The notes under the pieces: generated by a model | Databases searched by the model: none | Told to the model about the DNA's origin: nothing | What the model saw: only the letters and a program-made list of their open reading frames with translations | In this document: positions 12,312-52,071 of the stretch, piece by piece | Layout: each line of letters starts with the position of its first letter | Position numbering within the stretch: the first letter of the stretch is position 1 | Made by a program: the position numbers and the translations under genes | DNA from: Bacteroidota bacterium | Lineage (GTDB): Bacteria > Spirochaetota > Spirochaetia > JABMQR01 | Assembly: GCA_013202335.1 (NCBI GenBank) | Contig: JABMQR010000278.1 | Location: 1-64,000 of the forward strand | Direction of reading: 5' to 3' | DNA length: 64,000 nucleotides

Positions 12312-12312
12312 C

Positions 12313-14281: not shown

Positions 14282-14294
14282 AAAGGATTTTGAT

Positions 14295-19916: not shown

Positions 19917-19953
19917 ATAATGATAATTATTTAACGTTGATAATTATCATTAT
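19917..19953. terminator. AT-rich perfect inverted repeat after the nucleoside operon
   Basis: ATAATGATAATTAT and ATAATTATCATTAT are exact 14-base inverted arms around a 9-base loop, followed by GATAATTATTTTTG. It may be the operon's terminator, but the repeated TGATAAT/ATTATCA units also look like Fur-family binding boxes, so an operator role is possible. Confidence 0.45.
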
Positions 19954-20065
19954 GATAATTATTTTTGTTTGCGATAAAACAACTATGCTTACCCTTTAAC
20001 AATGAGCCCTGAATCAGCGGGTAAAAACTCACCACAGCCCCACCTAATCAACAATTACCTACTTA

Positions 20066-20105: not shown

Positions 20106-20121
20106 TGGCATAGAACTTGCT
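20106..20121 (+). promoter_or_regulatory. Sigma-54 promoter of the heterocycle-catabolic operon
   Basis: TGGCATAGAACTTGCT matches the -24/-12 consensus TGGCAC-N5-TTGC with the invariant GG and GC exactly ten bases apart. It lies 33 bases before the first aminohydrolase start, giving a short leader with its AAAAGGGG ribosome site. A sigma-54-dependent activator gene closes the same operon. Confidence 0.75.
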
Positions 20122-20153: not shown

Positions 20154-21557
20154 ATGCTCGATATTTGTATTAAAAATGGGATGCTTGTGACTCTTGATTC
20201 TGAGCGTCGAATTTTACAGGGAAATATATCAATACAAAACGGGCGTATTGTAGGGATAGGAGATGCTCTGCCTGAGGCAGCAAAGGTTATAGATGCAAAA
20301 GGCTGCGTGGTTATTCCGGGACTGGTGAATTGCCATACCCACCTCTATCAGGCTTTAATTGAAGGTATTGGCTATGATATGCATTTTGAACCCTGGAATT
20401 GGCGTTTCCTGTTTCCCATTGTATCCCGGATGTCTTCTCAGCACTCCTACCGCAGCACACGACTTGCCGCCCTGGAAATGATCAAAACTGGTACCACAAC
20501 TGTTTGTGATCACTGGTATATGCACACAGATTTTAAGAATATACGAGAAGCCTCAAGAGCTCTAAACGAAGCAGGATTACGAGGGAAGATGGTCTATGGG
20601 CTGCTGGATGAAAGCTTTGCCGGAGAATCATTAAGTGAAGACCAAATGACTATGCTTCATTCCCGAAAAGAACTTCTCGAAGATTTTCACAAATATCATA
20701 ATGAATGGCACAATAAAGGTACTCTTACAGCTGCTATAGGAGCCGGCTCCACCCAGGATGCTTCCGAGGAACTGCTCATTGAATCCAAACAGGTTGCTGA
20801 CCGCTTAGGTATTCCAATGTGTACACATGTAGCTGGATGGCAGGATATTCTGGCCTCTTCCTATAGTAAATACGGTATGCGGGATGTTGAATTTACCCGT
20901 TCAAGAGGACTCACCGGAAAGAACTCAATCTTTATTCATACCGTCTGGTTGAATCCAGGGGAAATTAACGATTTGGCTGAGACAAAAACCGGGGTTGTTC
21001 ACTGCCCGGCGGCCAATTCACAGCTTGGTTACGGTATTGCTCCGGTTGCAGAGATGCTGCAGGCCGGTGTTAAAGTAGGATTGGGAACTGACGGTGCGGG
21101 AAGTTATACGTATGACATGTTTGAGATGATGCGTCTTGCAGCTTATTTGCAGAAACAAAAGCATCATAGTGCAGATTTCTTTACTGCTGAGCAGGCTCTT
21201 GAACTTGCTACAATAAAGGGTGCCGAAGTCTTAGGTATGCAGGATGAAATTGGCTCGATTGAGGTGGGAAAGAGGGCTGATATTACGATTATTGATTTTA
21301 CACAACCCCATCTCATACTAAAAAACAGAGTTGTTCCAAAAATTGTGTACAGTGCAAACGGCAGTGACGTCAGGGATGTTGTTATCGATGGGAAAATTGT
21401 AATGGAACAGAAAGTTGTCACAACTATGAATGAATCTGAAGAACTGATGCTGGCTTCTGAGGCTATGGATGAACTTATGGAATCTGCCGGTTCTGAAACA
21501 GAGAGACTTCTGAATGCTCCCTGGAATTCAAAAAGACCTTACTGGATGGAAAAATAG
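20154..21557 (+). CDS. Amidohydrolase, TRZ/ATZ (chlorohydrolase-type) aminohydrolase
   Basis: 467 residues. Metal-ligand motif NCHTHLYQ after the beta-sandwich, later histidines in CTHVAGWQ and FIHTVW, and the terminal metal Asp in GTDGAGS mark the TRZ/ATZ deaminase group, which includes guanine, 8-oxoguanine, cytosine and adenosine-type deaminases. It ends with the usual KRADITIIDF return strand. First gene after the sigma-54 promoter. It probably deaminates an amino-substituted purine or pyrimidine. The exact base cannot be read from sequence. Confidence 0.88.
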   Translation: MLDICIKNGMLVTLDSERRILQGNISIQNGRIVGIGDALPEAAKVIDAKGCVVIPGLVNCHTHLYQALIEGIGYDMHFEPWNWRFLFPIVSRMSSQHSYRSTRLAALEMIKTGTTTVCDHWYMHTDFKNIREASRALNEAGLRGKMVYGLLDESFAGESLSEDQMTMLHSRKELLEDFHKYHNEWHNKGTLTAAIGAGSTQDASEELLIESKQVADRLGIPMCTHVAGWQDILASSYSKYGMRDVEFTRSRGLTGKNSIFIHTVWLNPGEINDLAETKTGVVHCPAANSQLGYGIAPVAEMLQAGVKVGLGTDGAGSYTYDMFEMMRLAAYLQKQKHHSADFFTAEQALELATIKGAEVLGMQDEIGSIEVGKRADITIIDFTQPHLILKNRVVPKIVYSANGSDVRDVVIDGKIVMEQKVVTTMNESEELMLASEAMDELMESAGSETERLLNAPWNSKRPYWMEK

Positions 21558-21602
21558 AATCTGAATAAACAACCTGTAGTTGTAGTAAATAAGGAGAATT
21601 AT

Positions 21603-23435
21603 ATGCCCTGGGCTGGAACACTTATGCGTGCTGACTTGACCTCACAAACATACCGGACAGAAGAAATCCCAAAAGATGTATTGAGAAAATATATTGGGGG
21701 AAAGGGTTTGGCAACCTGGTATTTCACCAATGAAGTTAGTCCGGATACTGAACCGTTAGGTCCTGATAATGTAATCTATATGGCTCCAGGAGCGTTTTCC
21801 GGAACAACAGTTCCTGCTTCTTCAAGATTTCACCTTGTAACGAAGTCACCGTTAACGGGTATTTACCTTGATTGCAGTTCCGGCGGCCACTTTGGTCCTG
21901 AAATGCGGTCCTGCGGTATTGATTTGCTGATACTGGAGGGGAAATCTACCGAACTTACGGGAATATATCTAAATAATCATACCGTTAAGTTTATTAATGC
22001 AAAAGAATTTTCCGGATTAGGAATATACGATACTGAAAAACGTGCTGCAGACCTCATTGGAGATAAACGAATCCATACCGCATCTATCGGTGGTGCAGGT
22101 GAACGGATGGTACATTACGCCTGTATAGGAAATGATTTTTCCCGGAACATCGGACGAGGCGGAGCCGGAGCGGTTTTTGGTTCAAAGAATTTGAAATTTG
22201 TTTCTGTTAAAGGTTCTACTCCGGTAATTCCTGCAAACCCGGAGCTCTATCCCGGTAAGGTTAAAGCTGTTTCTCAATGGATAGCAACGAACCCCTGGGT
22301 GCCGGGAACACGAGAGAAGGGAACGGCAGGCAATGTGGATAGTATGAGCAGTCTGGGTGTCTGGCCTGTTTGGAATTTTAGCGGAAAAGAGTTTCCCGGG
22401 GCAGAAAAAATTAACTTTGCGGCTTTGGATAAAAAACTGGTAAGACGACTCTCCTGTGCCAATTGTTCAGTATCCTGTTCAAAGGGATATCGTGATGATG
22501 TATATACCGGTGGTGAGATTGAAGGACCTGAGTATGAGACACTGTGCCTGTTGGGTCCCAATATCGGATTGGATGATCCTGATGGAATAGCGGCTTTAAA
22601 CTATATGTGCAATCAGCACGGGATAGACACAATATCAGCCGGCGCTGTGGCAGGTCTGGTTTTTGATGCAGTTAAAAGAGGTCTTGTTGAAGCCGCAGTA
22701 TTTGGTTTTACTTCGGAAATGCCCTTAATAAAGCAAGCTATGCATCTGTTGGAACTGATTTGCCGGAGAGAGGGAGTTGGTGAAATTCTCGCAAACGGAT
22801 CCCGTGCTACAGCTGAATTTCTTCATATGGAAGGGGAAGCACCGGAAGTTAAAGGACTTGATATAGCTGGTTACGACCCCCGGGCAACAACCGGGATGAG
22901 TCTTGCCTATCAAACCTCTGACAGAGGTGCCTGTCATCTTCGGAGTTTTCCACTGGGAAGAGAGTTTTCAGGTGTCCTGGAACCCGGGGACAGCATGGTC
23001 GGTAAAGCAAAGTTTGTTTCAGAACAGCAAAATGCAAAAGCGGCGCAGGAATGCCTCGGTATTTGCCAGTTTCCCTATGGAATCGGCATTAATCATGAAT
23101 GTATTGCTGAAATGCTTACGGTGTGTGTGGGTCACGATTATTCGGTAGAGGATATTGTTACCATTGGAGAGAGGATATGGAATCTGAGCAGATTGTTTAA
23201 TGCGGCTGCCGGGATTTCACGAAAGGATGATTATCTTCCGAAAAAGATTAGTGAAGAACCCCTGCAGTATGGGCCTACAAAAGGACGCAGGATGACCAGA
23301 GAGATGCAGGACACCATGCTGGATGAGTACTATCAGCTTAGAGGATGGGAAAGCAACGGAATTCCAACTCCTGAACGGATTGAAAAACTGGGATTGGACG
23401 AAGCCGCAGTAAAAATACAGGGGGCAGGAAAATGA
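21603..23435 (+). CDS. Tungsten-type aldehyde:ferredoxin oxidoreductase family protein
   Basis: 610 residues, the normal length of the AOR family. The N-terminal LRKYIGGKGLATWYF and ASSRFHLVTKSPLTG blocks bind the pterin, and CANCSVSC plus the later CLGICQFP supply the four cysteines for the [4Fe-4S] cluster. Family enzymes reduce acids or oxidise aldehydes; some (benzoyl-CoA-reductase BamB type) reduce aromatic rings. AAGGAG precedes the ATG and its stop overlaps the ferredoxin gene by four bases. In this operon it may perform a low-potential reduction of a heterocycle or oxidise an aldehyde product. Confidence 0.9.
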   Translation: MPWAGTLMRADLTSQTYRTEEIPKDVLRKYIGGKGLATWYFTNEVSPDTEPLGPDNVIYMAPGAFSGTTVPASSRFHLVTKSPLTGIYLDCSSGGHFGPEMRSCGIDLLILEGKSTELTGIYLNNHTVKFINAKEFSGLGIYDTEKRAADLIGDKRIHTASIGGAGERMVHYACIGNDFSRNIGRGGAGAVFGSKNLKFVSVKGSTPVIPANPELYPGKVKAVSQWIATNPWVPGTREKGTAGNVDSMSSLGVWPVWNFSGKEFPGAEKINFAALDKKLVRRLSCANCSVSCSKGYRDDVYTGGEIEGPEYETLCLLGPNIGLDDPDGIAALNYMCNQHGIDTISAGAVAGLVFDAVKRGLVEAAVFGFTSEMPLIKQAMHLLELICRREGVGEILANGSRATAEFLHMEGEAPEVKGLDIAGYDPRATTGMSLAYQTSDRGACHLRSFPLGREFSGVLEPGDSMVGKAKFVSEQQNAKAAQECLGICQFPYGIGINHECIAEMLTVCVGHDYSVEDIVTIGERIWNLSRLFNAAAGISRKDDYLPKKISEEPLQYGPTKGRRMTREMQDTMLDEYYQLRGWESNGIPTPERIEKLGLDEAAVKIQGAGK

Positions 23436-23830
23436 GAAGATATCTTTCTGTTGACCGGTCTACCTGTACAGGCTGCAGATCCTGTGAGTATGTCTGCTCC
23501 TTACATCATACAGGAGCTTTTAATCCTGCACAGTCACGGATACGGGTATATCGAAGCGGTTGTCTTGATCTTGCAACATTGGTCTGCAAACATTGCCCGA
23601 ATCCAATATGTATGAAGGTCTGTCCAGAGGCGGCAATAACCCGGATTGATGGACTTGTCCAGGTGGATCCGTTGCTCTGCACAGGTTGTGGGATCTGTGT
23701 TGATACCTGCAGAATGATGTTTATGGACGAAACAGAAAATAAAGCCGTGACATGTGATTTGTGCGGTGCATGTATAGATGAGTGTCCGGAAGAGGCGCTG
23801 AAAATTGAAATCTTGGGAGAGAGCAGATGA
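23432..23830 (+). CDS. Multi-cluster ferredoxin, partner of the AOR protein
   Basis: 132 residues with several CxxCxxC-type motifs: CTGCRSCEYVC, CKHCPNPICMKVC, CTGCGICVDTC and CDLCGACIDEC, enough for four [4Fe-4S] clusters as in HycB/AOR electron-transfer subunits. ATGA overlaps on both sides couple it to the AOR and the next aminohydrolase. It probably carries electrons to or from the tungsten enzyme. Confidence 0.92.
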   Translation: MRRYLSVDRSTCTGCRSCEYVCSLHHTGAFNPAQSRIRVYRSGCLDLATLVCKHCPNPICMKVCPEAAITRIDGLVQVDPLLCTGCGICVDTCRMMFMDETENKAVTCDLCGACIDECPEEALKIEILGESR

Positions 23831-25182
23831 AAAGAGTTATTACCAATACCATGGTTGTTACACCGCAGGTTGAGCAGGATTTGATCCGAAACGGATTTAT
23901 TGAGATTACAGACGACAGAATCAGTGCCATAGGTGCCATGGATCAGCTGTCCGAATATGAATATAAAGGAGATGTAGAGATCTTCAACGCCGATGGGAAA
24001 ATTGCAATTCCGGGTTTTGTCTGTGCACATAATCATATGTACAGCGCAGTGGTCAGGAGTATCCCTTATTCTGGGTTTGCAGAAGAGGATTTTTCCTTTG
24101 CTTCCTGGATGGAGCGATTCTGGTTTCAGAAACTGGAAAACAAAGTAAATAATACCGATGTTCTACAGGGAACACTGATAAATGCTATTGAGCATGTGAA
24201 ACACGGGTTTACGACCACTACAGATACCGTAGAAGGTCCGAACGCTCTTCCCGGTCCATTGTTTGCAGCAGGTGAAGCCGCAGAAAAGAGTGGAATCAGA
24301 GCAGTTCTCTCTTTTGAATCCACCGGCAGGCTTAGTCATGAGAATTTTGAATTGGGACTTGCAGAGAACCTCAATTTCTTCAAAGCAATGAAGGAAAAAG
24401 GGGGACGGGTTGAGGGTCGAATAGGGATTCATACGACCTACACAGTTACTCCGGAACAAGTGCAAATGGTCAGAAAAGCTGCTGATACACACGGTTGTGG
24501 AATTATGATGCATTTAAGCGACTCAAGATATCATACAACTGATTCAACACTTAAGTACGGCAAACGACCTGTGAAATGGCTGGAGGATCTTGGGTTCCTT
24601 GGACCGGATGTTCTCTTTTTTCATGCATCTTACATGGACATTCTTAGAGATCCGGAAATTCTTGCTAAATACGGGTGCAAAATTTCACATCAACCGGTAA
24701 GTAATGCAATGTTCGGGTTCTGGCCGAATATGGTACCTCTGCTTGCAGCGGGAATTCCTGTTGCGCTTGGGACTGATGGAATGACACAGTCGATGTTTGA
24801 AATTATGCGTACCTGTCAGATGATTCATCGGCTAAGGTATGAAGAGCTGGAATTACTTCCGGACAAAGATGTATTCAAGATGGCCACCATAAATGGCGCA
24901 AAGGCTATCGGTAAAGAGGACGATCTGGGTACTCTTGAAGTCGGTAAAAAAGCCGACATTGTTCTGATTGAAAACAGCAGTCCCGTGAAAGTGTTTGAAG
25001 CAAATATCTGGAACTATCTGGTTAGTGTTGCAGATAGTGCACATGTAAAGAGTGTTTTCGTTGATGGAGATTTAATAGTGAAAGATGGAGTTCACCAACT
25101 ACTTGATGAGAAGGCAGTTCGTGAACAGTGTCAGGATCAGGCAACCGATTTCTGGAAGCGTAACGGGTGGACTACTGCATGA
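23827..25182 (+). CDS. ssnA: SsnA-like putative aminohydrolase
   Basis: 451 residues, TRZ/ATZ amidohydrolase. CAHNHMYSAVVR carries the first metal histidines, MMHLSDS and FFHASY the later ones, and GTDGMTQS the catalytic Asp. The insert SIPYSGFAEEDFSFASWMER and overall length resemble E. coli SsnA (about 442 residues), an aminohydrolase of the anaerobic purine-degradation cluster. The gene is embedded between ferredoxin and M20 hydrolase genes with four-base overlaps. Second deaminase/cyclic amidine hydrolase of this operon. The gene symbol is assigned by resemblance only. Confidence 0.75.
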   Translation: MKRVITNTMVVTPQVEQDLIRNGFIEITDDRISAIGAMDQLSEYEYKGDVEIFNADGKIAIPGFVCAHNHMYSAVVRSIPYSGFAEEDFSFASWMERFWFQKLENKVNNTDVLQGTLINAIEHVKHGFTTTTDTVEGPNALPGPLFAAGEAAEKSGIRAVLSFESTGRLSHENFELGLAENLNFFKAMKEKGGRVEGRIGIHTTYTVTPEQVQMVRKAADTHGCGIMMHLSDSRYHTTDSTLKYGKRPVKWLEDLGFLGPDVLFFHASYMDILRDPEILAKYGCKISHQPVSNAMFGFWPNMVPLLAAGIPVALGTDGMTQSMFEIMRTCQMIHRLRYEELELLPDKDVFKMATINGAKAIGKEDDLGTLEVGKKADIVLIENSSPVKVFEANIWNYLVSVADSAHVKSVFVDGDLIVKDGVHQLLDEKAVREQCQDQATDFWKRNGWTTA

Positions 25183-26372
25183 GTAATACACTGCCGGATG
25201 TTGTCCTGCTAACCGAAAAGTTGGTAAGTATTGAAAGTGTCACCGGTAACGAGGCTGCAGTTGGTGATTATTTGGTAGAATACTGCAGGGAACGTGGGCT
25301 TAACGCTGAAAAGCAGTATTGTACTGATACCCGGTTCAATGTTCTTATCTCATACGGGGATCTTCCCGCAGAGGGAGGAGCCTATGGACTGTTACTCCAT
25401 GGTCATATGGATACTGTTCCATCGTTGGATATGGAAAAGGCCTTTATACCTAAAACAGACGACGATTATATATATGGGCGCGGAACAGTAGACCAAAAAG
25501 GTGGGCTTGCCGCGGCAGTAACCGCTTTGGTTTTTCTACAGAGTAGAGGAATACAATTGGAAAAACCGGTGTGTGTAGCAGCTGTCATTGATGAGGAATC
25601 TGAACATAGAGGAACAATGAAGTTAGTGGAATCCGGAATTCGGGCAGATGCGGCAGTTATTACCGAACCTTCCAATCTTCGGGCTGTTGTAGGCTGCAAA
25701 GGTACCCTCCCGCTTAAACTTACCGTAAAAGGGAAAGCTGCTCATGGGTGTCGGCCCTGGCTGGGAGTAAATGCAGTTCAGAAAGCACTTCCTTTACTGC
25801 AGGAATTGTTCGACATTGAGTTTCCTTCTCATTCCTATGATGACGTACCAGGTTCATTAATGAACTCCGTGAATGTAGGAATCGTTCAGGCAGGAACAGC
25901 CTATAACAATGTTCCTGACTCTTGTGAAATTTCACTTGATTGCAGGATCTCTCCGGGAGAGACGGTTGAGGGGATGAGAGAACGAATAGATCAGGTTATA
26001 AGTTCGGTAATGAAAAAAGATCCAACACTGCAGATACAGGTTTCAATCGATCGTCCTGACTGGAATTGGGAACCAATTAGAGAACGTGGTCTGAAACCTG
26101 CAAGAATTAGTGCAAGTGACCCTTTTATTCGGCTGGTTGAAAATATCCATAACGAAATAGTGGGAAATGATGTTGAATTCTATATCACTGATGGATATGC
26201 AGAAATTGATTTCATATTGAATGATCTTCATATTCCCTGCGTGTTGTATGGACCGGGAGAGCCTCATCTTTGCCATACATCTGATGAGTGCATCTCTTTG
26301 AATCAGCTTCGGAAATCAGTTGAGGTGTATGAACGCCTTATAGAGCGTCAGTGCGGTGTAGTTAAGGAGTAA
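25179..26372 (+). CDS. M20-family metallo-hydrolase (ArgE/DapE type)
   Basis: 397 residues, started at the ATG overlapping the upstream stop. LLLHGHMDTVPS and GRGTVDQKGGLAAAVTAL bind the two zinc ions, DEESEHRG carries the catalytic Glu pair, and TEPSN follows. The family removes N-acyl or N-carbamoyl groups from amino-acid-like molecules. In a base-degradation operon it could hydrolyse a ureido or formyl-amino acid after ring opening. One of two M20 genes here (the other is at 37466), which differ in substrate loops. Confidence 0.88.
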   Translation: MSNTLPDVVLLTEKLVSIESVTGNEAAVGDYLVEYCRERGLNAEKQYCTDTRFNVLISYGDLPAEGGAYGLLLHGHMDTVPSLDMEKAFIPKTDDDYIYGRGTVDQKGGLAAAVTALVFLQSRGIQLEKPVCVAAVIDEESEHRGTMKLVESGIRADAAVITEPSNLRAVVGCKGTLPLKLTVKGKAAHGCRPWLGVNAVQKALPLLQELFDIEFPSHSYDDVPGSLMNSVNVGIVQAGTAYNNVPDSCEISLDCRISPGETVEGMRERIDQVISSVMKKDPTLQIQVSIDRPDWNWEPIRERGLKPARISASDPFIRLVENIHNEIVGNDVEFYITDGYAEIDFILNDLHIPCVLYGPGEPHLCHTSDECISLNQLRKSVEVYERLIERQCGVVKE

Positions 26373-26376
26373 CGGG

Positions 26377-27273
26377 ATGGAAAAGTGTGCAGTTAAAGGA
26401 ATTATTACCGCAATGGTCACCCCTTTTCATGATGACGGACTGGTGGATTATGATACTGCAGTACAAATTGCCGATTGGCACTGTGGAAAGTCAGATGCCC
26501 TGTTTGTGTTAGGGACATCCGGTGAGGGAATGCTCCTTACGTACGAAGAACGGTCTCTTGTTGTAAAGCGTGTAGCAGAGGCTGTTGATGGACGTATTCC
26601 CCTTATTGCCCATACGGGAGCAATAACTACTGCAGAGAGTATTAAACTGACAGAATATGCGGTTAAAGCAGGAGTTGTGGCGGTATCGGCAATTACTCCC
26701 TATTATTTCCGGCTGGGAGAGAAGGAAATAACCAAACACCTTCTTACCGTAGCCAGGGCTGCCGGAGAAACACCCTTTTTCCTTTATAACAATCCGGCTA
26801 CAGCAGGAAATATCATTACTCCGGAGATTGTGAGAACACTTAGAGACAGTGCTCCGAACTTCAGTGGTATAAAAGACAGCAGTAAGAGTATCGAAAATTT
26901 AATTGGCTATAAAAAGCTGATCGGTCAGGGAGATTCTCTTTTTGTCGGTGGTGACAGAATTTTTCAAAAAGCGATGTCCTCAGGTGTCGATGGTGCGGTA
27001 AGTACCGTATCAAATCTCTATCCGGAATTATTTAGACAGATATACGATTGCTGCATTGCCGGAGACGAAAAGGGAGCCTCCGAAGCACAGAATGCTGTTA
27101 ACCGGGTGCTTGATATCTTAACCTCATATCCCTATTTTGCTGCGGTTAAATATATGCTGAAAACAAGAAATCTTCCGGAAAGCAACATACGGCCTCCTGT
27201 TGGAGCCCTTAGTAAACAAGATAAATATCAGTTGGAATCCCGGCTGGAGTATATGGAGACTTCGAATGAGTAA
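26377..27273 (+). CDS. DapA/NanA-family pyruvate-type aldolase or lyase
   Basis: 298 residues. [20 protein letters not shown] at the start, [10 protein letters not shown] for the carboxylate site, [11 protein letters not shown] with the conserved Tyr, and the Schiff-base lysine in SGIKDSS are complete. DapA-family enzymes form or cleave C-C bonds next to pyruvate. AAGGAG precedes the ATG. The position next to an IlvD-like dehydratase resembles sugar-acid catabolic pairs, so it may cleave a 2-keto acid produced by that dehydratase. Lysine biosynthesis is less likely in this context. Confidence 0.88.
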
Positions 27274-28972
27274 TGAGAATTCACGAAGCAGAAAAGCTGT
27301 TGGGGGCGATCATCGAATACCATGGGCTGTCAATCTGAAAGCTTGTGGATATACGGATGAAGAACTTGAGCGGCCGTTAATTGCGGTAGGTAACAGCTGG
27401 AGTGAAATGGTTCCCGGGCACATGCATCTTAAGGAGCTGTCGCAGGCGGTAAAAGATGGAATCAGAATGGCCGGTGGTACCCCGTTTGAGTTTAATACCC
27501 TTGCGCTTTGCGATGCACTTGCTCAAGGGCATGAAGGTATGCACTACATACTTCCGAGCAGAGAGCTCATTACCGGCAGCATAGAGATGAATGTTCAGTC
27601 AAATCAATTTGACGGGGTTGTTCTCATAGGTTCATGTGACAAGATTATTCCCGCTCAGCTCATGGCGCTGGCGCGGCTCAACATACCGGGAATTATACTG
27701 ACAGGCGGGCCAATGATTCAGGGAACCTACAAAGGGAAAAAAGTTACACCGACTGATGTTCTGGAGACCCTTGTTGCTCTTAAACAGGGGAAGGTGAGTG
27801 CTTCGGAACTAAGTGATATAGCTGATGCCTCATTTCCCTGTGCCGGATCCTGTGTTGGTATCTGGACAGCAAATTCTATGGCTTGCATCACTGAGGCTAT
27901 GGGGATGTCACTTCCTGGCTCGGGTACCATTCCTGCGGTCTACGCAGAACGAAAACGACTGGCTAAACAGACAGGCTTAAAGATAATGGAGCTGCTGCGC
28001 CGTAATATCAAGCCGCGGGATATACTCACAGAGGGGGCTTTTTTGAATGGTATCAAGATGGCTATGGCCCTTGGTGCTTCAACAAACGTCTTTCTTCATC
28101 TTCCGGCAATTGCAGCTGAAGCAGGTTTTGATCTTCCTCTGGATATTTTTGATCGGCTCAGTCGGGAAACCCCAAAACTCTGTGCACTGAGCCCCGGAGG
28201 ATCGTATGTGATTGAAGATTTGTATCATGCCGGAGGAGTCCCTGCAGTAATGAAATCCCTTGCAGACCTGCTGGATACAGAATGTATGACTGTTACCGGG
28301 AAATCTTTAAAATATACAATTAATAATGTGGACTATATAGACAGAAACGTTATACGGACAGCAGAGGATCCGATTTCTCAGGAAGGGGGACTAGCGGTGC
28401 TCAAAGGGTCTTTGGCTCCGGAAGGTGCTGTTGTAAGGACAGCGACACTGCCTGAGGGTATGGATAACTTTTCCGGTATCGCAAAAGTATTTAACTGTGA
28501 AGAAGATGCAACTGCTGCGGTTATCCGGGGTGATATCGTTGCCGGAGATATCCTGGTAATTCGCTATGAAGGTCCAAAAGGCGGTCCGGGAATGCGGGAA
28601 ATGCTCACTGCTACGGCAACGTTAAAAGGAGCAGGACTTGGTGCGAAAGTTGCCTTAATTACCGATGGAAGATTTTCAGGCGCTACCCGGGGACCTTGTA
28701 TAGGTCATCTGTCGCCTGAAGCCGCGGACGGAGGACCTATCGCCTTGTTGCAATCCGGGGATAAAATCTCTTTCTCTATCACGAATAGAAAAATAGACCA
28801 CCATTTAACTGATAAAGAGTTGGAATTACGGATTAAGCTCCTTAAACATCCTGAACCAAAAATCAATTCAGGGTATTTGGCAATATATCGGGAAATTGTT
28901 TCCTCGGCTGGAGAGGGGGCAATCCTCTCGCCACCATCCGGAAGGCAGAAAGGAAAGGAAATCAAAATATGA
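27266..28972 (+). CDS. IlvD/Edd-family Fe-S dehydratase
   Basis: 568 residues from an ATG overlapping the upstream gene; a longer frame starts inside that gene without a binding site. Cluster cysteines lie in [10 protein letters not shown] and FPCAGSCVG, with [13 protein letters not shown] and PGSG as in dihydroxy-acid and sugar-acid dehydratases. It removes water from a 2,3-dihydroxy acid to give a 2-keto acid. The setting beside a DapA-type aldolase, not other branched-chain amino-acid genes, favours a catabolic hydroxy- or sugar-acid substrate. Assignment to IlvD proper is not supported. Confidence 0.88.
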
Positions 28973-30045
28973 GCAGCAGCGTTGATCTAAGTATCCGTAT
29001 AGGGGATATAGCATTCAGGAATCCTCTGTTTTTATCCGAAGGTCCGCTTTCAGGTAGTGCTGAATTGATTAAAAGAGCAGCAGCGCATCAGGTTGGAGGA
29101 GTAGTTACAAAAAGCATCAGAAATGAACCTGCTAAATCACCCTCATGGTATATGGTTAAATCAGGCAAAGGTTTGATTAATGCTGACTGGTCCGATCTGG
29201 GTTTTGAGCAATGGTTGAAAGAGCTCGATTCTATAGAGATTGAAGTTCCCTTGATTGTAAATGTAGCGACAAATCATGTTACTCCGGAAAGGGCAGCGGA
29301 ATATGCGGCAATTCTTCAGCATCACGGTGCGGATATGGTGACTTTTTCTGATTATGAACCGGAAAATTTAATTGATGCCGTCAGGATAGCCCGAAAAAAT
29401 GTGGATGTACCGATTATGGTTAAACTTCCACCCTTTAGAAAAGATATTGGAGAGCTTTGCCGGAAACTGGAAGATGCAGGAGTAAACTGCATAGCGGCAA
29501 TGGATGCTGTAGGACCGGCAATGGATATAGATATCCTAACGGGCAAACCCCTTCTGGGAAACCGTGAAGGGTTCGGTTATCTCTCCTCTGCACCTATATT
29601 TCCCCTGACCCTCGCATATATTTCAGAAATTTGTAAAAACGTTTCTGTTCCGGTAATCGGTGTTGGTGGAGTTACCAGTTATAGGGATGTAATTAAACTT
29701 ATAATGGCCGGGGCAACCGGTGTAGGCATCGTTGGCGGTGCAATACTCCATGGTCTCGGAATTTTTGACAAAATAGCAAACGACCTCACCAGGTGGTTGT
29801 CAGAACAGGGATATACTTCCCTCGATCAGATCAGGGGACTCAGCCAGGGTCTGGAGATTGAAGAGTTGTATGATCTTGTTCCAAAAATCAATGGTGAGAC
29901 GTGCAATGGCTGCAGGGTATGTGTAACAGCATGTTTTACCGGAGCTATTGAAATTAAAGAACGGATCGCGGTGATCGATTCGGATACATGTGCAAGTTGC
30001 GGGGTGTGTCTCACTACATGCCCTAATACATCAATATTTTTATAA
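28969..30045 (+). CDS. PreA-like dihydropyrimidine/dihydroorotate dehydrogenase with C-terminal ferredoxin domain
   Basis: 358 residues. An FMN TIM barrel of the dihydroorotate dehydrogenase family ([42 protein letters not shown]) fills about 1-300. Two [4Fe-4S] motifs follow ([11 protein letters not shown] and [11 protein letters not shown]). This layout matches PreA, the catalytic subunit of NAD-dependent dihydropyrimidine dehydrogenase, but no PreT partner is adjacent. It could reduce or oxidise the pyrimidine or imidazole C=C bond using ferredoxin electrons. ATGA overlap with the dehydratase gene. Confidence 0.85.
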
Positions 30046-30062
30046 CTTTATGGAGGACGGAA

Positions 30063-31094: not shown

Positions 31095-31117
31095 CAGTTA
31101 AATTGGAGATGGGGATT

Positions 31118-34690: not shown

Positions 34691-34699
34691 GAGAAATAG

Positions 34700-37465
34700 A
34701 TGGAAATAATTCAACTAACAGTAAATGACATACAAAGAGTCTATGAAGGACCTAAAGATACGGTACTGCTTACATACCTAAGGGAGCATCTGGGATTGAT
34801 GGGTTCCAAAAACGGGTGTGGTGCAGGACATTGCGGAGCATGCATGATAATAGTTGATGGGAAAGCCAAACGTGCATGTCTTGTCAGGATGAAACAACTT
34901 CAGGGATCAGATGTTGAGACTATAGAAAATCTTTCAAAACAAGGAACTCTTCACCCTCTTCAGGCAGCTTTTGTTAACCACGGAGCTGTTCAGTGCGGGT
35001 TTTGCACACCAGGTATGATCATGTCGGCAAAGGCTTTACTGGATAATAACTTAAACCCGGGTGATGATGACATCCGCAAGGCCTTAAAGTTCAATATTTG
35101 CAGGTGCACAGGGTATGTAACCATAGCTGCTGCCATTAGAGATGCGGCCAAAGTTCTCAGAGAGGGTAAGACGCTCAAAATTCAGAATGAATGGAATGGA
35201 ATCGGGACACCCACAATTCGGCAGGAAGCTATAGATAAAGTAAAGGGAAAGCCTCTTTATACAGAGGATTTTCCGGTGAAGGGAGCGCTTCATGGAGAGC
35301 TTCTTCTTAGCCGTTTTGCACACGCTGAAGTAGTCTCAATAAAAACTGATAAAGCAGTGGCGCTTTCAGGAGTTGCGGCAGTGTTAACTGCTAAAGATAT
35401 ACCCGGCTCAAATGCTGTTGGTATTATCACAAAAAAGCAACCGGTACTTGCCCAGGAAAAAGTACGGTATCTGGGAGATGCTGTTGCACTGGTAATTGCA
35501 GAAACACCGGATATTGCACAAGAGGCCCTGAATTATATTGAGGTAACCTACCGGGAGCTTCCTGTGGTTATGAATATGCTTACAGCTGCAGAAGATGCTG
35601 TACATATTCACCAGGAAGGGAATGTTCTTTCTAAACTGCATATTCAACGCGGTGATATTAATGAAGGGTTTAGGCTGAGTGATGTAATAGTTGAAGAAGA
35701 AATTACCGTTCCTATGATCGAACACTCATATTTGGAACCCGATGCGGTATATGCAGTTCCGGAAGAAGATGATGTAATCACTGTTTATACTCAATCACAA
35801 AGTTCATTCAGTTACCGGGAAGAGATAGCGGAAAATCTCTCTCTTCCATTGGATCGGATTAGAGTAGTAACCCGTACCACAGGCGGCGCTTTTGGTGGAC
35901 GGGAAGAACCGACAATTCAGGTGCATGCAGCTCTGGGAGCATTGGTTACCGGGAAACCAGTTCATATGGTCATGACCAGAAAAGATGTACTTCTACGGAC
36001 AAGTAAACGGCATGGGGAAATATTACAGTATAAAATCGGAGCATCCAGCGATGGTAGGATACAGGCATTTCAGGCAAATATCATTGCAGATACAGGTGCT
36101 TACCCTTCTGCAGGAGAAGCGGTAATTCTTCGTTCGGTTTTATTTGCTCCCGGTCCCTATAAGATTCCAAATGCAGACATTCAGGGGATTGCGGTCTATA
36201 CCAACAGAACCCCGGCAGGTGCAATGCGTGGATTCGGAAGTAACCAGCCGGCAGTTGCCTCAGAAATAATGATGGATATGCTGGCCGAAAAACTCAACAT
36301 GGATCCTATTGAATTGAGGATGATAAATGGCCTTGAACCCGGGGCACACACTGTCGGAGGGCAGGTTCTTGATTCAAGTGTCGGTTTGAAAGAGTCTCTT
36401 GAAGCAGTAAGAGAGAAATTGGCAGACGAACTAATTCCCTCTTCATCCGGCAGCAGGCGTATTGGAATAGGTATCGCAAGTGCCATGAAAAATGTTGGGC
36501 TGGGTTCGGGTATGGATGACAGTGCCGGTGCAATCGCGGAACTTACTCATGAGGGTATTGTAATTAAGGTATCCAGTGTTGATAGCGGACAGGGATCTGA
36601 TACCGTAGTCAGGAGTATCGCCGCAGAAGTTCTTAATATTCATCCAGGCAGCATAAAGCTTATTACAAACGATACAGCACTTACCCTGGACTGCGGGGTG
36701 ACCACTGCATCACGACAAACATTTGTTACCGGAAATGCAGTAAAATATGCTGCAGCAGGATTAAAAAACCAAATTCTGGGGATTGCGGCAAAAGAACATG
36801 GAACACCTGTAGAAAAACTCGAAATACGCGAAAGCAATATCCTCGAATCTCAAACAGGTACGGTACTCAATACCCTTCATGAAATATTTATGAAGAGTGG
36901 GGTACTTTCTGAAACCAACACTTACACTGCACCGGTAACCGTTCCCGTCTCTGAAATTACTGACAATATCAATCGTGATGATGAATCCTTCAGACTTCAT
37001 TTCTCTTATTGCTACGGAACTCAGGCTGCAATTGTTGCTGTTGATACTGATAGCGGAAAGGTAGAGGTTTTGAAGGTTATTGCTGCGCATGATGCGGGTA
37101 AAGCAGTAAATCCAGCTGGTGCACGGGGGCAGATAGAGGGTGGAATTATGATGGGAATAGGATATGCCCTAACTGAGGAGTTCCTGATGGATGAAACTGC
37201 CCTAATTACTAATACTTTTAAGAAAACAGGTGTCCCTGGTATAGATATGATGCCGGAGATAGATTCTCTTCTTATTGAGAACCAACATCCTCTGGGTCCT
37301 TTTGGGGCAAAGGGAATGGGGGAACTTCCTATGCTCCCGACTACTCCCGCAGTGATTAATGCAATTTATCATGCGATTGGAGTTAGAGTAACGCACCTCC
37401 CGGCAAAGCCGGACACTTTAACAGCACTGCTGAAACAGCAGAAAAATGAAGCAGGAGGTAGATAG
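34700..37465 (+). CDS. Fused xanthine dehydrogenase/Mop-type molybdenum hydroxylase
   Basis: 921 residues with two N-terminal [2Fe-2S] domains (Cys40, Cys45, Cys48, Cys60; then Cys99, Cys102, Cys134, Cys136) joined directly to a Mo-cofactor domain. That domain shows TGGAFGGREE, MRGFGSNQPA and the catalytic-Glu motif GAKGMGELPM near the C-terminus. There is no FAD domain and no FAD-subunit gene nearby, so the layout is that of Desulfovibrio Mop (907 residues) and some selenium-linked xanthine dehydrogenases. Electrons probably leave to ferredoxin rather than NAD. Likely hydroxylates a purine or similar heterocycle. Confidence 0.88.
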   Translation: MEIIQLTVNDIQRVYEGPKDTVLLTYLREHLGLMGSKNGCGAGHCGACMIIVDGKAKRACLVRMKQLQGSDVETIENLSKQGTLHPLQAAFVNHGAVQCGFCTPGMIMSAKALLDNNLNPGDDDIRKALKFNICRCTGYVTIAAAIRDAAKVLREGKTLKIQNEWNGIGTPTIRQEAIDKVKGKPLYTEDFPVKGALHGELLLSRFAHAEVVSIKTDKAVALSGVAAVLTAKDIPGSNAVGIITKKQPVLAQEKVRYLGDAVALVIAETPDIAQEALNYIEVTYRELPVVMNMLTAAEDAVHIHQEGNVLSKLHIQRGDINEGFRLSDVIVEEEITVPMIEHSYLEPDAVYAVPEEDDVITVYTQSQSSFSYREEIAENLSLPLDRIRVVTRTTGGAFGGREEPTIQVHAALGALVTGKPVHMVMTRKDVLLRTSKRHGEILQYKIGASSDGRIQAFQANIIADTGAYPSAGEAVILRSVLFAPGPYKIPNADIQGIAVYTNRTPAGAMRGFGSNQPAVASEIMMDMLAEKLNMDPIELRMINGLEPGAHTVGGQVLDSSVGLKESLEAVREKLADELIPSSSGSRRIGIGIASAMKNVGLGSGMDDSAGAIAELTHEGIVIKVSSVDSGQGSDTVVRSIAAEVLNIHPGSIKLITNDTALTLDCGVTTASRQTFVTGNAVKYAAAGLKNQILGIAAKEHGTPVEKLEIRESNILESQTGTVLNTLHEIFMKSGVLSETNTYTAPVTVPVSEITDNINRDDESFRLHFSYCYGTQAAIVAVDTDSGKVEVLKVIAAHDAGKAVNPAGARGQIEGGIMMGIGYALTEEFLMDETALITNTFKKTGVPGIDMMPEIDSLLIENQHPLGPFGAKGMGELPMLPTTPAVINAIYHAIGVRVTHLPAKPDTLTALLKQQKNEAGGR

Positions 37466-38647
37466 ATGAATCAGGAAAGAAAAAATCAGCTTATAAATCT
37501 TTGTAGAAAAATGATTCAGACTCCCAGTGTTACCGGGAATGAAGAACGGCTGGTAAACCTTCTAAAGATGGAAATGCATGACCGCGGGTATGATGAAGTT
37601 AAAGTGGATTGTTTGGGGAATATTATTGGCAAGATTAATGGTAGTGGAAACGGAAAGACGCTTCTTTTCGATGGACACCTTGATACAGTGGCGATAACAA
37701 AAAGAAGCTCCTGGAGAAAAGAACCTTTTGGGGCAGAGCTGGAGAGTGGGAGAATTTACGGAAGGGGAGCTTCGGATATGAAGGGCGCTCTGGCAGCAAT
37801 GATTCAAGCCGGGGCTGATGCAAAACAGGATGGGCAGATTACCGGCGATATTTATGTTTCCGGAACTGTCTGTGAAGAGGTTGCTGAAGGGTATTCTCTC
37901 AACTCCGTAATCGATGCAACTGTACCTGATATTGTGGTTATAGGAGAAGCAACCAGTCTTAATTTAAATATCGGTCAACGCGGACGTGCTGAGATAGAGG
38001 TTAAGACCAAAGGAGTTCCAGCGCACTCCTCACACCCGGAAATTGGGGTTAATGCAGTGTATCACATGATGAACTTCATTAATCGAATAAGAGATCTTTC
38101 TGAAATCACTTGTGAGATACTGGGGAAAGGTAATATGGTTCTGACGGATATAATATCTTCTCCTTATCCTGGGGCTTCGGTTATACCAGAGTTGTGTATC
38201 GCTACATTTGATCGCCGCCTGCTTACAGGAGAGACTGAGGAGAGTGTTTTGGCCCCCTTAAGAAAGTGTATTACTGAAATGGCAAATGAAGATTCTGATT
38301 TCAAGGCTGAAGTATCAATCGCGGAGACAAAAATAAAGACCTATACCCGGTACGAGGGGATGCATCGAAAAATTGCTCCAGCCTGGCTGATGGAACAAGA
38401 TCACCCGGTTGTTCAGGATTCTCTACAGGCACTGAAAGATTTTGGGTTTACCGATATAGGAATCGGGACATACTCTTTTTGTACCAACGGCAGCTGTTCA
38501 GCCGGAATGCGGAATATTCCTACAATAGGATTTGGACCAGGCAAAGAGGAACAGGCACATGTAAACGATGAATTTATTGAGGTTCAGGAGCTGGAAGGAG
38601 CTTATAAAGGATATTATGCCCTAATGAAGGCATTTGCCGGAGAATAG
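37466..38647 (+). CDS. ygeY: YgeY-like M20 hydrolase
   Basis: 393 residues. LLFDGHLDTVAI and GRGASDMKGALAAMIQ bind zinc, TVCEEVAEG carries the catalytic Glu, and GQRGRAEIEVKTKG with the later FCTNGSCSAGM and GFGPGKEEQAH closely resemble E. coli YgeY of the anaerobic purine-degradation cluster. It immediately follows the Mo-hydroxylase gene. It may open or de-carbamoylate a ring-cleavage intermediate. The symbol is by resemblance; activity is inferred. Confidence 0.8.
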   Translation: MNQERKNQLINLCRKMIQTPSVTGNEERLVNLLKMEMHDRGYDEVKVDCLGNIIGKINGSGNGKTLLFDGHLDTVAITKRSSWRKEPFGAELESGRIYGRGASDMKGALAAMIQAGADAKQDGQITGDIYVSGTVCEEVAEGYSLNSVIDATVPDIVVIGEATSLNLNIGQRGRAEIEVKTKGVPAHSSHPEIGVNAVYHMMNFINRIRDLSEITCEILGKGNMVLTDIISSPYPGASVIPELCIATFDRRLLTGETEESVLAPLRKCITEMANEDSDFKAEVSIAETKIKTYTRYEGMHRKIAPAWLMEQDHPVVQDSLQALKDFGFTDIGIGTYSFCTNGSCSAGMRNIPTIGFGPGKEEQAHVNDEFIEVQELEGAYKGYYALMKAFAGE

Positions 38648-38695
38648 TATGTGACTTTTCCATTATTGATAGAGTGAGAGAGGTAGTTGATACAA

Positions 38696-40087
38696 ATGAG
38701 CTTGATTATACGAAACGGATATATTGTGGGTGAAACCCATATCACAAAGGCAGATATCTCTATTGAAAATGGTAAAATCCAGAAAATTTCTGATCCTCAT
38801 CTTCCCATTGCCATAAAGGATTCAGAGGAAGCAGAAGAGATTGATGCTGCAGGTTCCTATATATTCCCCGGGTTTATCGATGCTCATACTCATTACGGAT
38901 TGGCTGGAGATCAGTCGACTGCTGACGATTTTTTTTAGGGATCACAATGCGCGGCATTTGGCGGAGTGACAACATACATTGATTTTGCTGATCAGGAAAA
39001 TGATCAAACTTTCAGAGAAAGTGCAGGATCACGTATCAAAGCTGCAAAAGATTCCGTTATAGATTTTACTCTTCATCAAGGTGTCTATAAAATGCATGCA
39101 GGAATAGCGGAAGAGTTGTCTGATCTCCGAAATATGGGAATCAGGGCGCTAAAACTATTTACCACGTATAAAAACTTTGGTGTCTGTCTTGATGAATCTT
39201 CCTGGGAAGAGCTGTTTTCCCTTTGTAAAGACCTGGAAATGCTCGTTACTGTACATGCTGAAGATGATGAAGAAATAGACAAAGCCAGCCAAAGCTTGCA
39301 GTATGAAATTCCAGGCCCGGAATTTCATACTCTGTTTCGCCCGGCGACCGCTGAATATGTTGCAGTCATGAAAGCAGGGCTTTTGGCAATTAAACATCAA
39401 ATCCCCCTATATATTGTGCATCTTTCATCAGCTGAAGGACTCCGGGCGGTGAGAGAATTACGAGAGAGTGGAGCAGGAATTGTTGTAGAGACAACACCAC
39501 ACTATCTTTTTCTTAATAGAAATTATTTAGAAGGGAAGAACGGTTCTCTTTTTCTCATGACCCCTCCTTTAAGAGAGTCAATTGATAATGAGGTATTACT
39601 ACAGGCTCTTACTAATGGTGAGATTGATATTATTGCAACAGATCACTGTGCCTTCACCAGAGAGCAGAAGTTTGAAAAGCTTGATTGCAGGGAAATTCCC
39701 TACGGTATTCCGGGGAGTGAAGAACTTTCAAGGGTTGTATATTCAAGAGGTGTTGAAACCGGCAAAATTGATCTTGTGCGCATGATGCATTTGCTTTCAG
39801 CAACCCCAGCTAAAGTATTCGGCATTTATCCGGAAAAAGGTAGTCTGCTTCCGGGTACAGATGCGGATATTACAATATTTACCCCGGAAATTCCAAATGA
39901 ACTTACTTTCAGCACTCTTCACAGCAGGTCCGGATATTCTGTTTATGATGGGTTTACTGTCTTAGGGAAACCTTCTGTTACTATTCTTCGGGGAAAGGTG
40001 ATTGTAAGAGATGGCAACTTCACCGGGGTCAAAGGAGGTGGGGAATTCGTTCCCGGCAATACTCCTGCTCCATATATGGATATCTAA
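38696..40087 (+). pseudogene. Dihydropyrimidinase/hydantoinase interrupted by an in-frame TAG
   Basis: Both parts lie in one frame and are split only by TAG at 38936-38938 (codon 81 of about 464), between TADDFF and GSQCAAFGGVTTY. All expected motifs remain: metal histidines in DAHTHYG, the carbamylated lysine in IRALKLFTTYK, TVHAEDD, YIVHLSSAEG and the Asp in ATDHCAFT. The expected residue could be Gln (CAG to TAG). AGAGGT precedes the ATG. The intact downstream part implies a recent mutation, a sequencing error or readthrough. The enzyme would hydrolyse a cyclic ureide ring made by the PreA-like or Mo enzyme. Confidence 0.85.
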
Positions 40088-41567: not shown

Positions 41568-41820
41568 GTTTTTACCATTCCTAAGCTTCAACCATATAAT
41601 TAATCACACTCTATCTGGAAAGTCTTTATAATAACAGAATTAGTGAGTATGTCAAATATTTGTAAAGATGTTTTTTGTTTCTCTTGAGTATAAATAAGGG
41701 CAAATTACAGATAATAATGAACCAATCTGTTTGAACCGGCTCAATACTCTACAGACCTGCTGTTTGCAGTAGAAATATCGGGTAATATGTTGGATTATGG
41801 ATATGAACGAGTGAATTGAT

Positions 41821-46722: not shown

Positions 46723-46753
46723 TATGGATAATTTTAAAAAGAGGTTTTATAGT

Positions 46754-52041: not shown

Positions 52042-52071
52042 CGTTTTTTTTTAAAAGAATGGGGTGTTTCT

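What the first reader, a model, noticed from the sequence alone, without database searches (positions are those of the whole stretch)
20154..40087. Undescribed-looking anaerobic N-heterocycle degradation operon
Two TRZ/ATZ aminohydrolases, AOR with ferredoxin, PreA-like flavoprotein, fused Mo hydroxylase, two M20 hydrolases and a dihydropyrimidinase lie in one coupled series with a nucleoside-type transporter. SsnA-, YgeY- and hydantoinase-like members recall the E. coli anaerobic purine cluster, but no YgeW, YgeX or YgfK equivalent was seen, and a tungsten enzyme plus PreA-like protein are present instead. Four-base overlaps imply one pathway. The substrate, probably a purine or pyrimidine, is inference.
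Basis: partly seen in the sequence, partly recalled or inferred. Interest (0 to 1): 0.82.

Follow-up and report, generated by a model that had tools for sequence, protein, structure and literature searches.

The report
Tungsten-linked variant anaerobic purine-degradation operon
A set of fifteen neighbouring genes in an oxygen-avoiding bacterium looks like a divergent version of the recently solved route by which gut bacteria break down uric acid, with a tungsten enzyme built in that may supply its electrons.

Summary
The genes are real and tightly coupled: 15 plus-strand genes (20154-40087), largest gap 48 bp, a sigma54-like promoter before the first and a sigma54 activator after the last. Two corrections. 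The dihydropyrimidinase starts at 38696 and is interrupted by an in-frame TAG (38936-38938); relatives carry it intact. And a YgfK counterpart is present: the "PreA-like" protein is a UacX-type reductase, which replaces YgfK in Clostridioides difficile (PMC12507026); like UacX it lacks the NxSCP loop of E. coli PreA. The SsnA-like protein is sister to true SsnA (100/99). XdhD-, HyuA-, YgeY- and YgeV-like genes are there; YgeW/UacY and YgeX were not found in the window. Much of the series recurs in a Dethiobacter MAG and a Moorellia genome (probably Neomoorella glycerini). The operon's AOR belongs to a clade (100/100) that excludes 20 other AORs of three genomes examined, so it looks pathway-specific. 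Best reading: a ferredoxin- and tungsten-linked variant of the reductive uric-acid pathway, AOR plus ferredoxin feeding UacX and the Mo enzyme. What AOR, DapA and IlvD act on is unresolved. Novelty: new variant of a known kind.

The parts
19940..19962 (.). 10-bp perfect inverted repeat with 3-bp spacer (ATAATTATCA-TTA-TGATAATTAT), possible activator site; also Fur-box-like (Fur box recalled)
   Evidence: read directly; exact match once in the window; function inferred
20106..20121 (+). sigma54-like -24/-12 promoter TGGCAT-N5-TTGCT, 32 bases before the TRZ1 ATG
   Evidence: one of two sites with at most 1 mismatch in the 64 kb, both strands; with up to 2 mismatches the window holds fewer sites (16) than shuffles (mean 31)
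20154..21557 (+). TRZ1, TRZ/ATZ amidohydrolase (467 aa); probably an aminopurine deaminase (inferred)
   Evidence: Pfam PF01979; second-best solved structure is named 8-oxoguanine deaminase; 57-61% to relatives in L001, L002, L022
21603..23435 (+). AOR1, tungsten aldehyde:ferredoxin oxidoreductase family (610 aa)
   Evidence: PF01314, PF02730; nearest 1AOR, 387 bits, with CxxCxxxC, a later Cys, EGPEYE and CH positions aligned; operon-linked clade
23432..23830 (+). ferredoxin-like electron carrier, 17 Cys, room for four [4Fe-4S]
   Evidence: Cys positions
23827..25182 (+). SsnA-like amidohydrolase (451 aa)
   Evidence: best NCBIfam model SsnA, 261 bits, under the 444 cut-off; sister to canonical SsnA, 100/99
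25167..26372 (+). M20a, ArgE/DapE-type M20 hydrolase (alternative ATG start 25179)
   Evidence: TIGR01910 230.7 over cut-off 217.6; 40-51% in relatives
26377..27273 (+). DapA-superfamily class I aldolase/lyase; keeps Tyr133 and Lys161, lacks Arg138 of E. coli DapA
   Evidence: PF00701; below the dapA cut-off; residue check
27266..28972 (+). IlvD-type dehydratase
   Evidence: TIGR00110 704.7 over cut-off 618; pairs with the G1411 operon copy, 100/100
28969..30045 (+). UacX-type FMN reductase with C-terminal 2[4Fe-4S] (the 'PreA-like' protein)
   Evidence: tree; no NxSCP loop
30063..34690 (+). BMP/PnrA-type ABC importer: 30063-31094 binding protein, 31103-32644 ATPase, 32616-33761 and 33758-34690 permeases
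34700..37465 (+). fused [2Fe-2S] + Mo-cofactor hydroxylase, XdhD/Se-XDH type, no FAD domain
   Evidence: TIGR03311 764 bits, under the 830 cut-off; 39% to the Xdh of canonical cluster L014; 28% to E. coli XdhD
37466..38647 (+). YgeY, M20 hydrolase
   Evidence: NF009555 426 over cut-off 321
38696..40087 (+). HyuA/dihydropyrimidinase gene interrupted by in-frame TAG at 38936-38938
   Evidence: intact relatives P0123 (81%), P0125 (78%)
40101..41591 (-). sigma54-dependent activator, YgeV-like
   Evidence: PF00158; 45% over 316 aa to E. coli YgeV; 55% over 484 aa to the Dethiobacter regulator in L017
41886..47581 (+). second BMP-type ABC importer and purine nucleoside phosphorylase (46631-47581); probable feeder of nucleosides
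   Evidence: role inferred

Best explanation
A divergent, ferredoxin- and tungsten-linked variant of the reductive uric-acid (purine) degradation pathway, in this window under sigma54/YgeV-type control. Proposed working: the ABC importer brings in a purine or nucleoside; TRZ1 deaminates an aminopurine; the FAD-less Mo enzyme (XdhD type) reduces uric acid to yanthine; UacX reduces the ring with ferredoxin; SsnA and HyuA open the two rings; YgeY and M20a remove the two ureido groups, M20a standing in for YgeW/UacY. AOR1 with its four-cluster ferredoxin oxidises an aldehyde and delivers the low-potential electrons that UacX and the Mo enzyme need. Shown: gene content, recurring order, family placement, conserved AOR residues, promoter-like site. 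Inferred: all substrates, M20a as the YgeW/UacY substitute, AOR as electron source, the aldehyde, the control, and the end of the pathway (IlvD/DapA).
For: Li et al. 2025 (PMC12507026; outline, passages and sections 5 and 13 read): UacX replaces YgfK in C. difficile, reduced ferredoxin is suggested as its donor, and C. difficile XdhD lacks the FAD subunit, as here (no YgfM hit). SsnA sister to canonical SsnA 100/99. UacX-type by tree and by missing NxSCP loop. YgeY over its curated cut-off. HyuA and YgeV homologues. The series recurs in Dethiobacter, where YgeX and the regulator sit at its head (L001, L016, L017), and without HyuA and regulator in G1411. Two clusters in the class of G1411 with UacX and YgeY (one also YgeW) carry the same importer type, and one an AOR-ferredoxin pair. 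AOR1 proteins of five loci form a clade, 100/100, against 20 other AORs of G001, G004 and G005. TRZ-AOR-Fd is duplicated in G1411.
Against: YgeW/UacY and YgeX are not in the window, so the known end of the pathway is not carried there. G1411 has no HyuA and no YgeV-type regulator in the 38 kb fetched; its best hydantoinase (475 bits, over cut-off) lies 1.9 Mb away. UacX is only 30-35% and SsnA 26-28% identical to canonical ones, so the ring substrate could differ. G002 has seven of the enzymes but no AOR match in its genome (a MAG, completeness not given), so AOR is not indispensable. The pathway steps described in PMC12507026 and PMC12990295 make no aldehyde. HyuA is interrupted in this sequence. 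L003, L004 and the part of the L005 contig examined (L015) carry AOR/Fd/UacX parts of the set without close SsnA, HyuA or YgeY; L003 and L004 are short contigs.
Confidence: 0.6

Rival explanations
1. Same core enzymes but another heterocycle (another purine, a purine glycoside, a pterin or a pyrimidine); products are processed as C3 hydroxy/keto acids by IlvD, DapA, 2-hydroxyacid dehydrogenase and, in G1411, ketol-acid reductoisomerase.
For: Low identity of UacX and SsnA to canonical ones (30-35%; 26-28%); extra enzymes in relatives: 2-hydroxyacid dehydrogenase (L001, L003, L004, G1411), KARI and SDR (G1411), GH1 glycosidase (L002); no YgeX over cut-off in G1411 and G002.
Against: SsnA is sister to true SsnA; HyuA plus YgeY suggest two rings and ureido groups; Dethiobacter keeps YgeX at the head of the same series.
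Confidence: 0.25
2. Two functions share one transcript: a purine route plus an oxidative sugar-acid route (IlvD, DapA, AOR: pentonate to pyruvate plus glycolaldehyde to glycolate) for the nucleoside sugar.
For: Nucleoside phosphorylases, deoB, deoC and BMC genes flank the operon; DapA lacks Arg138 and could be a 2-keto-3-deoxy-acid aldolase.
Against: IlvD scores far better against dihydroxy-acid dehydratases than against named sugar-acid dehydratases (470 against 326 bits); TRZ1-AOR-Fd is found without IlvD/DapA in L003 and L004 (short contigs); no sugar dehydrogenase in the operon itself.
Confidence: 0.12
3. Reductive pyrimidine (uracil) degradation with PreA, dihydropyrimidinase and a ureidopropionase.
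For: PreA-like, dihydropyrimidinase-like and M20 names; pyrimidine-nucleoside phosphorylase just upstream.
Against: UacX lacks the NxSCP loop that E. coli PreA has; SsnA, YgeY, Mo hydroxylase and YgeV-type regulator have no known place in the Pyd pathway.
Confidence: 0.06

Closest known systems
C. difficile uric-acid (UacX/UacY) gene cluster, Li et al. 2025, PMC12507026
   Same: FAD-less XdhD, UacX instead of YgfK, SsnA, HyuA, YgeY
   Different: No UacY and no YgeX in the window; adds AOR, ferredoxin, second M20, DapA, IlvD and a BMP ABC importer. C. difficile sequences themselves were not compared; UacX is 30-35% and SsnA 26-28% identical to those of the canonical-type clusters examined here
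E. coli yge/ygf/xdhD cluster (NC_000913, L020)
   Same: YgeV-type sigma54 regulator, YgeY, HyuA, SsnA, XdhD relatives; sigma54-like site before ygeW
   Different: No YgfK, YgfM, YgeW, YgeX, YqeA hit in the window
Cetobacterium somerae plasmid cluster (NZ_CP143320.1, L029)
   Same: sigma54 regulator, YgeY, SsnA, UacX-type 4Fe-4S protein, Mo enzyme, dihydropyrimidinase
   Different: Has dpaL (YgeX), D-aminoacylase, GuaD, FAD subunit and NCS2 permeases; no AOR in the 19-kb stretch shown
PydAc of Clostridium chromiireducens (PMC7332683, passages read)
   Same: FMN domain without FAD domain, ferredoxin-dependent
   Different: Uracil reductase; PydAc sequence itself not compared
AOR of Pyrococcus furiosus (1AOR) and Aromatoleum (8C0Z) (organism names recalled)
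   Same: Fe-S ligands and Glu/His positions aligned with 1AOR
   Different: Substrate unknown; own operon-linked clade among the AORs compared (1AOR and 8C0Z not in that tree)

Membership tests
Reductive uric-acid degradation cluster | XdhD-type Mo reductase | tested here: met
   39% to the Xdh of canonical cluster L014, 28% to E. coli XdhD; activity not tested
Reductive uric-acid degradation cluster | YgfK or UacX reductase | tested here: met
   UacX homologue 30-35% to six canonical-type ones; tree puts window-type in a sister-level clade, not nested among them
Reductive uric-acid degradation cluster | SsnA | tested here: met
   sister to four canonical SsnA, 100/99; NCBIfam cut-off not reached
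Reductive uric-acid degradation cluster | HyuA | tested here: inconclusive
   gene present, interrupted by TAG; intact in relatives
Reductive uric-acid degradation cluster | YgeY | tested here: met
   NF009555 426 bits, cut-off 321
Reductive uric-acid degradation cluster | YgeW or UacY | tested here: not met
   YgeW: no hit in the window; UacY: only hits of 73 and 66 aa to amidohydrolase N-termini
Reductive uric-acid degradation cluster | YgeX | tested here: not met
   no hit in the 64 kb; rest of the genome not held. Over cut-off in 3 of 11 related genomes (G001, G741, G560), not in G1411, G002-G005, nor in G375, G1242, G1428, which have canonical-type UacX
Reductive uric-acid degradation cluster | conversion of uric acid to pyruvate via yanthine | not testable with these tools
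   needs enzyme assays
PreA/PydA dihydropyrimidine dehydrogenase | NxSCP active-site loop as in E. coli PreA | tested here: not met
   absent in the 12 window-type, AOR-type and canonical-type UacX rows, present in PreA; that its Cys is catalytic is recalled
Tungsten AOR family | [4Fe-4S] Cys ligands, EGPEYE Glu and CH His | tested here: met
   residue roles recalled
DHDPS (DapA proper) | Arg138 | tested here: not met
   Thr in the window, L001 and G1411; residue role recalled
Sugar-acid dehydratase/aldolase route | IlvD nearer sugar-acid dehydratases | tested here: not met
   DHAD 470 bits against L-arabinonate/galactonate dehydratases 326 and 279
Xanthinase pathway (Rabinowitz) | xanthinase and decarboxylase | not tested
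   no reference sequence at hand

The most novel reading that the evidence does not exclude
AOR1 is not a side supply but a tungsten enzyme acting directly on a purine or on a pathway intermediate made by its partner amidohydrolase (TRZ-AOR-Fd being a unit, duplicated in the Moorellia genome), and the pathway ends without PLP: the C3 unit leaves as tartronate semialdehyde/hydroxypyruvate, is reduced to glycerate (2-hydroxyacid dehydrogenase or KARI) and dehydrated by the IlvD paralogue to pyruvate in place of YgeX. (Lowered from 0.17 to 0.14 on re-check: in G1411, G1242 and G1428 a hydantoinase sits within 500 bp of a distant PALP-type relative of YgeX, which could do that step.)
Probability: 0.14. 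Interest if true: 0.85.

Novelty: new variant of a known kind. Interest (0 to 1): 0.6.

Why it matters
A 2025 commentary (PMC12990295, part 1 of 2 read) lists the physiological electron donor of XdhAC, the Mo enzyme that starts reductive uric-acid breakdown in Clostridium sporogenes, as still undiscovered. An AOR-ferredoxin pair found beside UacX and the Mo enzyme in several phyla is a concrete candidate for organisms that have it, testable with a probable cultured species (Neomoorella glycerini). It would give tungsten AORs a defined role in purine breakdown and show how the pathway can run without YgeW/UacY and perhaps without YgeX.

Tried and rejected
Rejected: 'no YgfK equivalent' (UacX is one); uracil pathway (loop missing); DapA as a true DHDPS (below cut-off, no Arg138); IlvD as the ordinary biosynthetic copy (G1411 has a separate better-scoring IlvD and KARI elsewhere; the window's own genome could not be checked). 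Against my own reading: the IlvD at the contig end of Dethiobacter does not group with the window/G1411 pair (89/77 with a copy from G1428), so IlvD may have been recruited twice; DapA occurs together with YgeX in Dethiobacter, so it is not simply a YgeX replacement; YgeX over cut-off is also missing from three genomes with canonical-type UacX (G375, G1242, G1428), so its absence is not special to the window type; in G1411, G1242 and G1428 a hydantoinase lies within 500 bp of a weak PALP match (33-37 bits to the YgeX model), a possible other source of both steps; G1411 has neither HyuA nor a YgeV-type regulator in the 38 kb fetched; the two AOR2-type proteins do not form one clean clade.

Led nowhere: whole genome of the window not held; viral-contig scan found no relative. 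The plasmid search gave 16 records, the ten listed at 25-31% identity; the Cetobacterium ones served as canonical reference. Paper searches found no AOR in a purine-degradation context: 66 papers with at least 4 of 5 terms, 20 listed, none of the 20 holds the AOR term, 28 papers with at least 3 of 5, 15 listed, one holds the AOR term, a review of Mo enzyme maturation, not opened, 3 papers with all five terms, not opened, 73 papers, 20 listed, one with the AOR term, on organic-acid reduction, not opened; 'aldehyde' does not occur in the main text of PMC12507026. led only to PMC12507026, PMC12990295 or nothing used. PMC11448449: passages only, not relied on.

Not used: structure prediction, fold search.

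On re-check I added, lowered the best explanation from 0.62 to 0.60 (HyuA and regulator missing beside the G1411 series) and the novel case from 0.17 to 0.14.
Full report
WHAT IS THERE. Between 20154 and 40087 fifteen plus-strand genes follow one another with gaps of at most 48 bp and five 4-base overlaps: TRZ1 amidohydrolase, AOR, ferredoxin, SsnA-like amidohydrolase, M20a, DapA-like, IlvD-like, UacX-like ('PreA-like'), BMP-type ABC importer (4 genes), fused Mo hydroxylase, YgeY, HyuA. The HyuA gene starts at ATG 38696, not 38966, and carries an in-frame TAG at 38936-38938; E. coli HyuA aligns over 38696-40051 in one frame. Relatives have it whole: P0123 (81%, 463 aa, on a contig of the same length, 67127, as the contig of UacX relative P0002) and P0125 (78%, named Spirochaetes bacterium). 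The truncated form itself (P0121) is counted in two contigs, so the stop may not be a single read error.

CONTROL REGION. TGGCAT-N5-TTGCT at 20106-20121 ends 32 bases before the first ATG. It is one of only two sites with at most one mismatch to the sigma54 -24/-12 consensus (consensus recalled) in the 64 kb, both strands. At up to two mismatches the window is poorer in sites than shuffles (16 against a mean of 31). Of 15 related loci scanned, five (L013, L014, L016, L017, L020) hold a site with at most one mismatch. One is before ygeW in E. coli (L020), one before the YgeX gene of Dethiobacter (L017), one before the YgeX gene of L013, and one of four in L014 is before YgeY; the one in L016 lies inside the IlvD frame. 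The other ten loci hold none, the two G1411 stretches among them. A YgeV-like sigma54 activator (45% to E. coli YgeV) follows the operon on the other strand.

WHAT IT IS. Li et al. (PMC12507026; outline, passages, sections 5 and 13 read) show that E. coli reduces uric acid to yanthine (XdhD), then dearomatises it (YgfK) and opens the rings (SsnA, HyuA). The ureido groups are cleaved by YgeW or UacY and by YgeY, and diaminopropionate goes to pyruvate (YgeX). In C. difficile UacX replaces YgfK and UacY replaces YgeW; XdhD lacks its FAD subunit, and ferredoxin is the suggested donor. The window matches the C. difficile form in three ways: no FAD subunit is encoded (no YgfM hit), the reductase is UacX-like, and a ferredoxin is encoded. 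The reductase shares 30-35% identity with six canonical-type UacX and 27% with E. coli PreA, and like UacX it lacks the NxSCP loop that PreA has. In a 41-row tree the window-type sequences lie in a 34-row clade (100/99) next to, not inside, the canonical-type UacX groups. The SsnA-like protein groups with four canonical SsnA (100/99), apart from TRZ1 and GuaD.

CONSERVATION. One genome-contig scan with the UacX alignment gave five loci. Dethiobacter (G001): YgeX, sigma54 regulator, HyuA, TRZ1, AOR, Fd, SsnA, M20a, DapA, UacX, importer, 2-hydroxyacid dehydrogenase, Mo enzyme, YgeY, IlvD cut by the contig end. G1411 has a UacX identical to P0049 of Neomoorella glycerini and a contig of 3,509,388 bases against 3,509,488, hence probably that species. 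Its series is TRZ1, AOR, Fd, SsnA, M20a, TRZ2, AOR2, Fd2, DapA, IlvD, KARI, UacX, importer, TRZ3, SDR, 2-hydroxyacid dehydrogenase, Mo enzyme, YgeY. No HyuA and no YgeV-type regulator lie in the 38 kb fetched; its best hydantoinase is at 580 kb of the contig, against 2.52 Mb for UacX. G002, a Clostridia MAG: SsnA, M20a, UacX, TRZ1, a GH1 glycosidase, Mo enzyme, YgeY, HyuA, but no AOR match in the genome. L003 and L004: TRZ1 (cut), AOR, Fd, UacX (42-43%), transketolase and 2-hydroxyacid dehydrogenase; in L004 also M20a and Mo enzyme. L005: Fd, UacX, M20a, Mo enzyme, the contig ending beside Fd. Two further clusters in the class of G1411 with UacX and YgeY (one also YgeW) carry the same importer type, one with an AOR-ferredoxin pair. 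UacX relatives are rare: 2 of 392 genomes (phylum of G005, E 1e-70), 1 of 97 (class of G001, 1e-70), 3 of 291 (class of G002, 1e-70), 1 of 295 (order of G002, 1e-100), 2 of 398 (phylum of G001, 1e-100), 3 of 22 (class of G1411, 1e-70). The sets overlap, each count includes its centre, and in all but the last only the first few candidates per genome (5 to 21) were scored.

THE AOR LOOKS SPECIFIC. Its Fe-S cysteines and the EGPEYE and CH positions align with 1AOR (residue roles recalled). In a tree of 27 AORs the five operon AOR1 proteins (window, G001, G1411, L003, L004) form one clade (100/100) that excludes the 20 other AORs sampled from G001, G004 and G005 (these 20 were taken from the 35 matches, fragments included; other AORs of G1411 were not sampled). 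So this is probably not a general aldehyde-detoxifying AOR caught by chance. The AOR2-type copies of G1411 and G1428 lie outside that clade.

HOW IT PROBABLY WORKS. The best-supported scheme is in the best explanation. M20a most simply replaces YgeW/UacY, by analogy with YgeY, itself an M20 enzyme. AOR plus ferredoxin would generate reduced ferredoxin for UacX and the Mo enzyme; the donor of XdhAC is listed as unknown in PMC12990295. The aldehyde is unknown. YgeX (TIGR03528 over cut-off) is present in 3 of 11 genomes examined, including Dethiobacter, and not in G1411 or G002, nor in three genomes with canonical-type UacX. G1411 has a second, divergent IlvD (683 against 815 bits) and a second KARI (222 against 262 bits) in the operon, which would fit hydroxypyruvate or tartronate semialdehyde to glycerate to pyruvate. 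This is speculation: the Dethiobacter IlvD is of another lineage, DapA and YgeX coexist there, and G1411, G1242 and G1428 each have a hydantoinase within 500 bp of a weak PALP match that could be another route to the same end.

SETTING. Upstream lies a bacterial-microcompartment gene group with an aldehyde dehydrogenase, deoC, deoB and a pyrimidine-nucleoside phosphorylase (11.7-19.9 kb). Downstream lie a second BMP importer and a purine nucleoside phosphorylase. The region thus reads as a nucleoside-use island: sugar to the compartment, base to this operon (inference).

VERDICT. Real, recurrent and worth following. Not outside known biology: a new variant of the reductive purine pathway with an apparently pathway-specific tungsten AOR. 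It fails two defining features of the known cluster inside the window (YgeW/UacY and YgeX), so it is filed as working like it, not as a plain member.

Noticed in passing
window 11716-15332: Bacterial microcompartment genes (two EutN/CcmL, a BMC-domain protein with two matched stretches) with a PduP/EutE-like aldehyde dehydrogenase, followed by deoC, deoB and pyrimidine-nucleoside phosphorylase: looks like a deoxyribonucleoside compartment.
   Followed up: partly
window 19940-19962: Perfect AT-rich inverted repeat before the sigma54-like promoter; resembles both an activator site and a Fur box.
   Followed up: partly
window 51943-53558: The amidase at 52578-53558 matches only profile positions 202-518, so its N-terminal part is missing in that frame; an upstream 159-aa frame may hold part of it. 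Possibly another interrupted gene.
   Followed up: no
window 16238-17398: 386-aa protein with only a weak thymidine-kinase match (38 bits, cut-off 183) between deoC and deoB.
   Followed up: no
L022 11424-15150: Second TRZ-AOR-ferredoxin triple inside the same operon in the probable Neomoorella glycerini genome, suggesting the three act as a unit.
   Followed up: partly
G1411:C1:580277-582773, G1242:C1:631350-633553, G1428:C1:2952732-2954940: Hydantoinase over cut-off within 500 bp of a weak PALP (distant YgeX-model) match in three genomes of one class: a separate locus that may supply HyuA- and YgeX-like steps.
   Followed up: no
L002 12525-13886: GH1 glycosidase between TRZ1 and the Mo enzyme in the Clostridia MAG: a hint that a heterocycle glycoside may be a substrate there.
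   Followed up: no
L003, L004: A transketolase and a 2-hydroxyacid dehydrogenase (with a GntR/FCD regulator in L004) follow TRZ1-AOR-Fd-UacX in these two contigs.
   Followed up: no
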